Shown: one piece after another, positions 959 through 6,204 of the stretch
How the letters are laid out: each line of letters starts with the position of its first letter
Numbering within the stretch: position 1 is the stretch's first letter
IMG/VR virus record: IMGVR_UViG_3300020433_000012
Location: 1-46,276 of that record
From: a virus
DNA length: 46,276 bases
Reading direction: 5' to 3' (one strand)
Program-made: the position numbers and the translations under genes
The notes under the pieces: model-generated
What the model was told of the DNA's origin: nothing
What the model saw: only the letters and a program-made list of their open reading frames with translations
The model's database searches: none

Positions 959-1004
959 TCAAAAAAATTTCTCCAAATTTTTTGGATCTCTATAGTTTTT
1001 TTCA

Positions 1005-1038
1005 AGGGGGTTGACACCCTCTTTTTTTATGCTATAAT
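1005..1038 (+). promoter_or_regulatory. Merged terminator and sigma70-type promoter
   Basis: AGGGGGT (1005-1011) pairs with ACCCTCT (1016-1022) around TGAC, followed by seven T residues (1022-1028): a rho-independent terminator. The same bases hold the -35 box TTGACA (1011-1016), 16 bp from a perfect -10 TATAAT (1033-1038). Transcription should start near 1045, exactly where a strong hairpin begins. The stretch 1011-1038 is repeated identically at 5922-5949. Confidence 0.8.
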
Positions 1039-1044
1039 ATATTT

Positions 1045-1259
1045 GTTGACCTGACGAGGTTAACACGGGAGTGACTGAATAACCCTGTTGGAATTAGGCG
1101 GGGTAATGTAAACGGTCAGGGGTGGTGCCCGCTTCTTCGGAAGAACTTCTTACCAGAAGGACTGTTGTTGTTATGTACTAATTTTCGCACTAGCGATTCC
1201 CATAACTTGAGGGTAAAATGTATTCCCTCCTCCCACCCCTCTTTAAGAGGGTTTTTTTT
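1045..1259 (+). ncRNA. Candidate structured small RNA of about 210 nt
   Basis: This non-coding stretch lies between a consensus promoter (start near 1045) and a terminator. It can fold into a chain of helices: 1045-1052 with 1057-1064 (8 bp, one G-U pair); 1098-1102 with 1128-1132 (GCGGG/CCCGC); 1132-1135 with 1140-1143 closing a cUUCGg tetraloop; 1146-1150 with 1155-1159; 1170-1175 with 1201-1206, with CGC/GCG (1186-1188/1193-1195) inside; 1209-1213 with 1225-1229; and the terminator stem 1237-1241 with 1247-1251. The frames are broken by stops. GAGGG/CCCTC arms occur twice and could swap partners, so an attenuator-like leader for the gene at 1376 is the alternative to a free sRNA. I do not recognise it as a named RNA family. 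Confidence 0.7.
1237..1259 (+). terminator. Terminator of the structured RNA
   Basis: CCCTC (1237-1241) pairs with GAGGG (1247-1251) around TTTAA and is followed by eight T residues. The 5' arm could alternatively pair with GAGGG at 1209-1213. Confidence 0.8.
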
Positions 1260-1310: not shown

Positions 1311-1318
1311 TATAAATA
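1311..1318 (+). promoter_or_regulatory. T4-type late promoter TATAAATA
   Basis: An exact TATAAATA box lies 58 bp upstream of the start codon at 1376. This is the sequence recognised by the gp55/gp33/gp45-type late transcription machinery in T4. Confidence 0.65.
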
Positions 1319-1327
1319 AAACCCTTT

Positions 1328-1370
1328 TTGTGTTGAAAGTATGATAAATTATATGAGGAACTCAACACAA
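1328..1370 (+). promoter_or_regulatory. Inverted repeat enclosing a Shine-Dalgarno-like sequence
   Basis: TTGTGTTGA (1328-1336) and TCAACACAA (1362-1370) are perfect 9-bp complements. The purine stretch GAGGA (1355-1359) lies inside the loop and the start codon follows at 1376. The linear spacing from GAGGA to ATG is long (16 nt); folding of the stem would mask the site or change the distance. A translational control element is inferred. Confidence 0.5.
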
Positions 1371-1375
1371 ATAGA

Positions 1376-1639
1376 ATGTCAGGAGATTATTTTACCCACA
1401 ACGATAGACAACCATGTATTTCAAACTACTCTGCTTTGAAGTGGGATAGCACAGGTGAATTGTCAGAACTTGACATGGATAGGATATTGGAATTACTCAA
1501 TAAAAATGAAGAACCAGAAGAGTGTGAAGTTTCTGTAGCAATGGATGAAATTAAAGAATCTAAATGGAAAGATTCTACTTACATCAAATCTATTCATGTC
1601 AACGCACGATACCGAACTGGTAGTGCGATCCAAGAATAA
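1376..1639 (+). CDS. Hypothetical acidic protein (87 aa)
   Basis: Soluble, acidic, with no membrane segment or recognisable motif. It contains an ELSELDMDRILELLNKNEE helix-like stretch (residues about 29-47) and two cysteines. It follows a late promoter box at 1311 and a 9-bp inverted repeat at 1328-1370. Its stop codon overlaps the ATAAATA late box for the next gene. The structured RNA upstream ends 117 nt before it, so it could be the downstream gene of an attenuator. Function unknown. Confidence 0.65.
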   Translation: MSGDYFTHNDRQPCISNYSALKWDSTGELSELDMDRILELLNKNEEPEECEVSVAMDEIKESKWKDSTYIKSIHVNARYRTGSAIQE

Positions 1640-5861: not shown

Positions 5862-5912
5862 CTAAATAAGATTGAGACATCGTTCGTGCGGTCTCTACAA
5901 TCGGAACTTACA

Positions 5913-5949
5913 AGAGGGTGCTTGACACCCTCTTTTTTTATGCTATAAT
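5913..5949 (+). promoter_or_regulatory. Merged terminator and sigma70-type promoter
   Basis: AGAGGGTG (5913-5920) pairs with CACCCTCT (5926-5933), followed by a T-run. The loop and 3' arm hold -35 TTGACA (5922-5927), 16 bp before -10 TATAAT (5944-5949). The start site near 5956 leaves a leader of about 12 nt for glutaredoxin. Bases 5922-5949 are identical to 1011-1038. Confidence 0.85.
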
Positions 5950-5967: not shown

Positions 5968-6204
5968 ATGAATTTTTCTGTATACACTCGTAATGGTTGT
6001 CCCTATTGCTCAAAAGTCAAAGCAGTTATCTCTAGTAAGGGATATAAGTTTACTGAGTATCGTTTAGACACACACTTTGATAGACAAGGTTTCTATGAAC
6101 AGTTTGGTGCTGCTAGTACATTTCCTCAAGTAATTTTAGATGGTAAAAAACTTGGTGGTTGTACGGAAACTGTTCTATATTTGAGAGAGAACAACTTGAT
6201 ATAA
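5968..6204 (+). CDS. nrdC: Glutaredoxin
   Basis: A 78-residue thioredoxin-fold protein of normal glutaredoxin length. The dithiol active site CPYC is at residues 11-14, the cis-proline motif TFPQV near residue 52 and the GG C-terminal motif (LGGCTE) near residue 64. It donates electrons to ribonucleotide reductase or reduces glutathione-mixed disulfides in the host cytoplasm. It is driven by the consensus promoter at 5922-5949 with a very short leader lacking a Shine-Dalgarno sequence. The family is certain; the T4 symbol nrdC is used by analogy. Confidence 0.92.
   Translation: MNFSVYTRNGCPYCSKVKAVISSKGYKFTEYRLDTHFDRQGFYEQFGAASTFPQVILDGKKLGGCTETVLYLRENNLI

What the first reader, a model, noticed from the sequence alone, without database searches (positions are those of the whole stretch)
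1045..1259. Structured, independently transcribed RNA in the phage genome
A perfect sigma70-type promoter starts RNA at the first base of an 8-bp hairpin; seven or more helices follow, including a cUUCGg tetraloop, and a terminator ends it. The order of helices is dense for random AT-rich DNA. GAGGG/CCCTC arms occur in two hairpins, so a switch between them is possible. It may be a phage sRNA or an attenuator for the gene at 1376.
Basis: seen in the sequence. Interest (0 to 1): 0.82.

Follow-up and report, generated by a model that had tools for sequence, protein, structure and literature searches.

The report
Cyanophage manA RNA with own terminator
The structured RNA is real and belongs to a known but unexplained RNA family called manA, and comparing many related phages suggests it is an RNA module passed between phages, present once per genome, rather than a switch for the gene beside it.

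Summary
Window 1044-1239 (+) matches Rfam RF01745 (manA RNA) over its full length: 130.9 bits, gathering score 55.2. A 12-of-12 sigma70-type promoter places the start at the first hairpin, and an intrinsic terminator begins at the motif's 3' end.

The family is known; Rfam calls it cis-regulatory, but the papers I found show no function. An attenuator of the gene at 1376 is poorly supported. The proposed GAGGG/CCCTC switch is absent in two relatives that keep the same terminator. That gene keeps its own upstream region in P-SSM7, where a 1.5-kb gene separates it from manA.

Of 23 cyanomyovirus genome records, 17 carry exactly one manA and 6 none, at 7 kinds of site. Its sequence often follows another lineage than its neighbours: window and P-SSM7 gp32 are 96% identical, their manA 54%.

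Best reading: a mobile, single-copy phage RNA module, here a free RNA of about 215 nt, probably acting in trans. No transcript data were available.

The parts
1004..1030 (+). terminator-like hairpin AAGGGGGTTGACACCCTCTT + T run; its arm and loop hold the -35 box and its T run is the promoter spacer (upstream terminator and manA promoter share the same bases)
   Evidence: hairpin 1004-1023; exact second copy of 1011-1038 at 5922-5949; a terminator-like hairpin lies in the 80 nt before manA in 65 of 172 unique loci, in 60 with TTGAC inside it
1011..1038 (+). sigma70-type promoter TTGACA-16-TATAAT
   Evidence: 12 of 12 matches; a -10 box just before the first hairpin is a family trait
1044..1239 (+). 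manA RNA (Rfam RF01745), full length
   Evidence: 130.9 bits, model 1-192 of 192
1044..1065 (+). P1, 5' hairpin starting at the expected transcription start
   Evidence: covariation (54 distinct helices in 65 sequences)
1067..1234 (+). P2, closing helix GGGAG (1067-1071) with CTCCC (1230-1234)
   Evidence: invariant in the main set because the search pattern contained it; GGGTG/CACCC in P-HM1 and P-RSM1 and MED4-213 (3' end CACCC)
1083..1103 (+). P3
1112..1165 (+). P4 branched domain: closing helix 1112-1117/1160-1165 with three hairpins 1119-1130, 1132-1143, 1146-1159
1170..1206 (+). P5 with inner helix 1185-1188/1193-1196
   Evidence: 37 distinct P5 helices in 65 sequences, at least 5 bp in 65 of 65
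1209..1229 (+). P6, GAGGG/CCCTC here, mostly GTTGG/CCAAC in relatives
   Evidence: 4 of 5 pairs change on both sides, 100% of cells paired
1237..1259 (+). intrinsic terminator CCCTCTTTAAGAGGG + T8
   Evidence: same terminator type in L053 and P-SSM7
1311..1318 (+). TATAAATA upstream of the next gene; resembles the T4 late promoter (recalled); not part of the RNA
   Evidence: kept in P-SSM7 and L053; TATAAATA itself is not over-represented in the window (4 on + strand against 2.66 expected)
1376..1639 (+). 87-aa ORF after the RNA, no Pfam or PHROG family; orthologue of PSSM7_229

Best explanation
The feature is a manA RNA (RF01745) carried by a T4-like cyanophage related to P-SSM7. Shown from sequence: its own promoter, overlapping a terminator for the upstream gene, would start the RNA at the base of the P1 hairpin; the RNA folds into the manA structure; a terminator that begins at the motif's 3' end would end it after about 215 nt, before the next gene, which has its own upstream region. 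Inferred: the RNA is a separate, position-independent phage RNA that acts in trans as a folded RNA binding a protein, another RNA or a small molecule, and moves between phages as a single-copy module. In other phages the same module is joined to different downstream sequence (gp32, talC, tRNAs, a second hairpin), so being a 5' leader seems optional, not the conserved function. Target and partner are unknown.
For: Promoter and terminator at the RNA's ends in the window. A -10-like box before P1: 5 or 6 of 6 matches in 148 of 161 loci with a P1, against 9.3% of 3500 random places; 5 nt before P1 in 106 of 159. Copy number: 23 cyanomyovirus genome records searched, 17 with exactly one manA, 6 with none, none with two; 38 longer viral contigs: 37 with one match over the cut-off, the 38th with two partial matches at its end. 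Position: the 17 single copies lie at 7 kinds of site. gp32 and talC are each present once in all 17, yet manA directly precedes gp32 in 1 and talC in 2 of them. Mobility: of 16 genomes (S-TIM4 dropped as a near-duplicate of P-RSM4) the nearest relative by manA and by gp32 agrees in 4. P-RSM6 and P-SSM3 have manA 96% and gp32 75% identical, at different sites; P-RSM1 and MbCM1 share the gp23 site with gp32 96% and manA 52% identical. Window and P-SSM7: gp32 96% (protein), downstream gene 82% (DNA), manA 54%; window and S-SSM7: gp32 66%, manA 79%. In 17 of 174 loci a tRNA follows within about 100 nt; RNase P cleavage there would separate manA from the next gene (established knowledge, inference here). 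Phage confinement: 1 of 300 genomes of the Prochlorococcus family has manA, on a 189-kb contig that matches cyanophages; 0 of 394 in the order of Shewanella.
Against: No transcript data. In all 174 loci with enough sequence a same-strand ORF of 40 aa or more starts within 500 nt, median 70 nt, though these phages code mostly on one strand. In 60 of 174 loci no terminator, tRNA found by ARAGORN, or second hairpin was found between manA and the ORF, so there it looks like a leader; in one (L093) the ATG is 11 nt after P2. Downstream families are not random: gp32 50, transaldolase 19, phosphomannomutase-like 9, Hsp20 7, mannose-6-phosphate isomerase C-terminal domain 5, PurS 3 of 173, the kind of list that led Weinberg et al. 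to propose cis-regulation. manA and gp32 distances still correlate weakly (Mantel r 0.27, 141 of 5000 permutations as high). The 17 positive genomes were chosen because BLAST had found manA in them.
Confidence: 0.52

Rival explanations
1. manA is a cis-regulatory element (riboswitch or attenuator) of the adjacent gene, as Rfam and Weinberg et al. 2010 class it; in the window it would control read-through of the terminator at 1237-1259 into the gene at 1376.
For: Rfam type Cis-reg; Weinberg et al. list manA as RNA 'Y', cis-reg 'Y', switch 'y' (passages read). Complex, highly conserved fold. Same-strand ORF close by in 174 of 174 loci, with recurrent metabolic genes. Here the terminator starts within the last 3 nt of the motif match and the P6 5' arm could pair with the terminator arm.
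Against: The alternative pairing is missing in L053 and P-SSM7, which keep the terminator; in 19 of 21 terminator loci the match of the terminator arm to the P6 5' half is 3 nt or less. Terminators in most of those loci start 12-50 nt after the motif. An SD-like 4-mer before the first ORF in only 29 of 172 loci, 5 of 85 in the class with the second hairpin, so a general SD-masking platform is unlikely. One copy per genome before different genes although gp32 and talC are always present. The gene at 1376 is two genes away from manA in P-SSM7.
Confidence: 0.28
2. manA is a 5' cap domain: starting exactly with a hairpin and closed by P2, it protects phage transcripts or processed leaders from host RNase E, with no ligand and no trans target.
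For: Transcription is expected to start at the base of P1 in most loci; placed before gp32 in 50 of 173 loci; in L112 and L010 a tRNA ends on the base before manA, which would give the same 5' end by processing.
Against: A cap needs only a hairpin, not about 190 nt with dozens of invariant loop bases; and it would be expected on several genes per genome, not on one.
Confidence: 0.15
3. Chance hairpins in AT-rich DNA.
For: Energy alone is only moderately unusual (z -2.60); simple hairpins of the P1 kind occur in 23% of control stretches.
Against: RF01745 at E 5.3e-34; compensatory changes in all tested helices.
Confidence: 0.01

Closest known systems
manA RNA motif (Rfam RF01745; Weinberg et al. 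2010, PMC2864571)
   Same: Full-length match to the covariance model, same helices, cyanophage host range.
   Different: An intrinsic terminator directly follows the motif, so the 5'-UTR role proposed for the family is not evident here. The window's type (CCCTGTTGG in P3) differs from that of its near relative P-SSM7 (54% identity).
wcaG RNA (RF01761) and PhotoRC-II (RF01717), other cyanophage RNA motifs
   Same: Structured RNAs of T4-like cyanophages, function not shown (papers).
   Different: No match to these families in the window; PhotoRC-II is described as sitting upstream of psbA, whereas manA has no fixed neighbour.
CfrI, antisense RNA of cyanophage S-PM2 (as described in PMC9602691)
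   Same: A phage-encoded non-coding RNA near photosystem genes.
   Different: CfrI is antisense to the psbA 3' end; this RNA is intergenic on the sense strand and highly structured.

Membership tests
manA RNA (RF01745) | covariance-model score over the curated gathering score | tested here: met
   130.9 bits against 55.2, positions 1-192 of 192
manA RNA (RF01745) | consensus helices present and kept by compensatory change in relatives | tested here: met
   50 of 51 mapped pairs standard; eight helix tests, own partners beat 200 of 200 re-dealings; 27 of 53 pairs change on both sides, 0 of 500 shuffles as high, although a +1 slide of the imperfect MAFFT alignment scores higher on the covariation score and on cells changed on both sides
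manA RNA (RF01745) | lies in the potential 5' UTR of a gene (cis-regulatory class) | tested here: inconclusive
   137 nt upstream of the same-strand ORF at 1376, but a strong terminator lies between
riboswitch | binds a ligand | not testable with these tools
   needs in-line probing or similar
riboswitch | expression platform mutually exclusive with part of the aptamer, conserved | tested here: not met
   GAGGG/CCCTC alternative present in the window, absent in L053 and P-SSM7, which keep the terminator
stand-alone small RNA | own promoter and terminator at the RNA's ends | tested here: met
stand-alone small RNA | a discrete transcript exists | not testable with these tools
   no RNA-seq or Northern data at hand
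stand-alone small RNA | conservation independent of neighbouring genes | tested here: met
   17 of 17 single copies at 7 kinds of site; manA and gp32 nearest relatives agree in 4 of 16

The most novel reading that the evidence does not exclude
manA is misfiled as a riboswitch candidate. It is a mobile phage RNA gene: one copy per genome, bounded by its own signals, swapped as whole alleles between cyanophage lineages even at an unchanged site, and often coupled to a second conserved hairpin that no Rfam model describes. Such behaviour resembles a trans-acting host-takeover or phage-phage competition determinant rather than a metabolite sensor.
Probability: 0.4. Interest if true: 0.72.

Novelty: new member of a known kind. 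Interest (0 to 1): 0.45.

Why it matters
manA has stood as a riboswitch candidate since 2010 and is named as cis-regulatory in cyanophage papers. If it is instead a free, mobile phage RNA, ligand searches aim at the wrong target, and the window gives a clean test case: a manA with its own promoter and terminator next to a gene with its own upstream region. P-HM1, P-HM2 and P-SSM2 carry manA and have cultured Prochlorococcus hosts (MED4, NATL1A) in their records, so the question can be tested on isolates.

Tried and rejected
Energy alone as proof: z -2.60 is too weak by itself. GAGGG/CCCTC switch: rejected by L053 and P-SSM7. A GGTGG/CCACC pairing between the P4 loop and the 3' tail: not pursued, because the tail varies (CCCAC, CCCTC, CCCCA) while the loop does not (alignment). 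An alternative loop-loop contact GGTGGT with ACCA: both are present in 65 of 65 sequences, but invariance gives no covariation; idea only. SD masking by CUCCC: few SD-like sequences. Host origin: 0 of 394 and 1 of 300 genomes, the one on a phage-like contig; the output warns that nothing rang anywhere. The two gamma-proteobacterial manA RNAs reported in 2010 were not found or tested as such. Of the 34 genome contigs pattern matches I kept L131, L132, L133, L137 and L153; the other 29 lack manA features beyond the 16-mer by eye.

Caveats. Its exact 16-mer makes the P2 5' strand invariant by construction. The 179 unique loci mix two scans, one of them selected on the second hairpin, so the share of loci with that hairpin (85 of 174) is inflated; in the manA-selected scan it was seen at 27 sites in 120 loci. 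The MAFFT alignment A1 misplaces variable helices (P1, P4, P5), hence the alignment-free test. PHROG names the gene at 1-567 photosystem II D1; its ending RGNAL suggests D2 to me (recalled).

Full report
What is there. The window comes from a virus record of 46,276 bases whose nearest named relative in the phage collection is Prochlorococcus phage P-SSM7 (50% of the first 25 kb covered at 86%). Between an 87-aa ORF (664-927) and another 87-aa ORF (1376-1639) lies a full-length match to Rfam RF01745, manA RNA, at 1044-1239 (+): 130.9 bits, gathering score 55.2. It is the only match over a gathering score in the window, and the only manA in the record.

Ends. A 12-of-12 sigma70-type promoter (1011-1038) would start transcription at the base of the first hairpin. 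Its -35 box lies inside a terminator-like hairpin (1004-1023) whose T run is the promoter spacer, so the upstream gene would stop where manA starts; a second exact copy of the 28-base promoter stretch lies at 5922-5949. After the RNA comes CCCTCTTTAAGAGGG and eight T (1237-1259). From start to end of the T run is 215 nt.

Structure. Mapping the Rfam consensus gives 51 pairs in the window, 50 of them standard. In 65 relatives, each under 90% identical to the others, I tested eight helices without trusting the alignment: each 5' arm was paired with its own 3' arm or with arms dealt anew. Own partners scored higher than all 200 re-dealings for every helix; P1 had 54 distinct helices and P5 37. 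P2 could not vary in this set because the search pattern held it, but GGGAG/CTCCC becomes GGGTG/CACCC in P-HM1 and P-RSM1, with the same 3' end in MED4-213. Pair counts on the MAFFT alignment agree (27 of 53 pairs with changes on both sides, 0 of 500 shuffles as high), with the reservation that a +1 slide of the partners also scores high there. Rfam's authors report 48 significant pairs for the corrected family alignment (PMC7779021, passages read).

What was known. Weinberg et al. [quoted passage not shown] Later cyanophage papers repeat the cis-regulatory label (PMC9964418 and PMC10665884, passages read); S-CREM1 has one manA. My searches for manA RNA names listed no paper showing a function or a ligand; only the open part of the literature is held.

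Is it an attenuator of the gene at 1376? Three comparisons speak against it. First, the alternative pairing: L053 and P-SSM7 carry the same kind of terminator 2 nt after the motif, but their last hairpin is ATTGG/CCAAT and cannot pair with it; among 21 loci with a terminator and without the second hairpin, only the window and L029 show a 5-nt match. Second, the neighbour: in P-SSM7 the orthologue of the 1376 gene is separated from manA by a carbamoyltransferase gene of 1.5 kb. Third, that gene carries its own upstream sequence with TATAAATA in the window, P-SSM7 and L053 (the resemblance to a T4 late promoter is recalled).

Family-wide behaviour. I collected 179 unique manA sequences. Of 173 with enough upstream sequence, 161 have a P1 hairpin, and 148 of those 161 have a -10-like box with 5 or 6 of 6 matches just before it, against 9.3% of 3500 random places. 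Of 23 cyanomyovirus genome records, 17 hold exactly one manA and 6 hold none. The 17 copies lie at 7 kinds of site: after gp23 (7), after pstS (3), between nrdB and talC (3), and four single sites. gp32 and talC are each present once in all 17, but manA directly precedes gp32 only in P-HM2 and talC only in P-TIM40 and P-RSM6. In 16 genomes (one near-duplicate dropped) the nearest relative by manA and by gp32 agrees in 4; P-RSM6 and P-SSM3 share manA (96%) but not gp32 (75%) or site, and P-RSM1 and MbCM1 share gp32 (96%) and site but not manA (52%). The window itself is such a case: against P-SSM7, gp32 is 96% identical in protein and the downstream gene 82% in DNA, yet manA is 54%; against S-SSM7, gp32 is 66% and manA 79%. 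A weak overall correlation with gp32 distances remains (r 0.27, 141 of 5000 permutations).

What follows manA. In 174 loci a same-strand ORF starts within 500 nt in all, median 70 nt; 25 have a simple terminator within 140 nt, 85 a second conserved hairpin (inflated by selection), 7 a tRNA found by ARAGORN (17 by a T-arm signature), and 60 none of these. Downstream ORFs fall into 36 clusters, led by gp32 (50 of 173), a DUF6561-like protein (23) and transaldolase (19). So the RNA is often a leader, often not.

Second hairpin. AGACC-TAAGATGCA-ACTC-loop-GAGT-C-GGGCAGAT-GGTCT is absent from Rfam. In a scan selected on this hairpin, 76 of 76 sites with at least 200 nt upstream had manA 174-188 nt upstream, and 18 of 19 truncated sites still had the CYTCCC 3' strand. 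Outer arms change together (AGAC/TCTT, AAAC/TTTT, TAAC/TTAC), and 32 of 48 distinct copies are followed by a T run. It is not in the window.

Judgement. The RNA is real and is a new member of a known family. Membership is clear; the family's presumed cis role is not evident here. A single-copy, site-shifting, allele-swapping module with its own start and, here, its own stop is best read as a phage RNA gene acting in trans (0.52), with riboswitch or attenuator (0.28) and 5' cap (0.15) as rivals. Which of these holds needs transcript mapping and genetics.

Noticed in passing
L016:3494-3526 and 94 further sites: A second conserved hairpin (CCTAAGATGCAA...GGGCAGATGG), not in Rfam, found only directly after manA: 76 of 76 sites with enough upstream sequence; often followed by a T run.
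   Followed up: partly
window 5912-5949: Second copy of the composite in which the -35 box sits inside a terminator hairpin and the T run is the promoter spacer; it precedes the ORF at 5968 (thioredoxin-domain PHROG). With a strict pattern, 30 of 33 such composites in 1.55 Mb of manA-bearing loci lie directly before manA.
   Followed up: partly
L112:1120-1384 and L010 (also L059 by eye): A tRNA gene ends on the base before manA starts, with no promoter between, as if tRNA processing supplied the 5' end of manA.
   Followed up: partly
L283:1567-1740 (P-SSM4 PSSM4_169.1), L161:2577-2783 (S-SSM5 SSSM5_127), L286:1556-1730 (P-HM2 PHM2_011/012), L157:2597-2728 (S-SSM7 SSSM7_180): Annotated hypothetical proteins overlap the manA RNA, two of them sharing cluster T4-GC 428; probably spurious ORFs in an RNA gene.
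   Followed up: no
L132 (Nonlabens xiamenensis strain 1Q3 contig, 188 kb) and L137/L289 (Prochlorococcus AG-418-C09 contig, 189 kb): L132 is 99% identical to cyanophage P-TIM40 over 8 kb, so phage DNA in a flavobacterial assembly; the AG-418-C09 contig matches cyanophage replication genes.
   Followed up: yes
window 1329-1369: Inverted repeat TGTGTTGA...TCAACACA just before the ORF at 1376, kept in P-SSM7 and L053.
   Followed up: no
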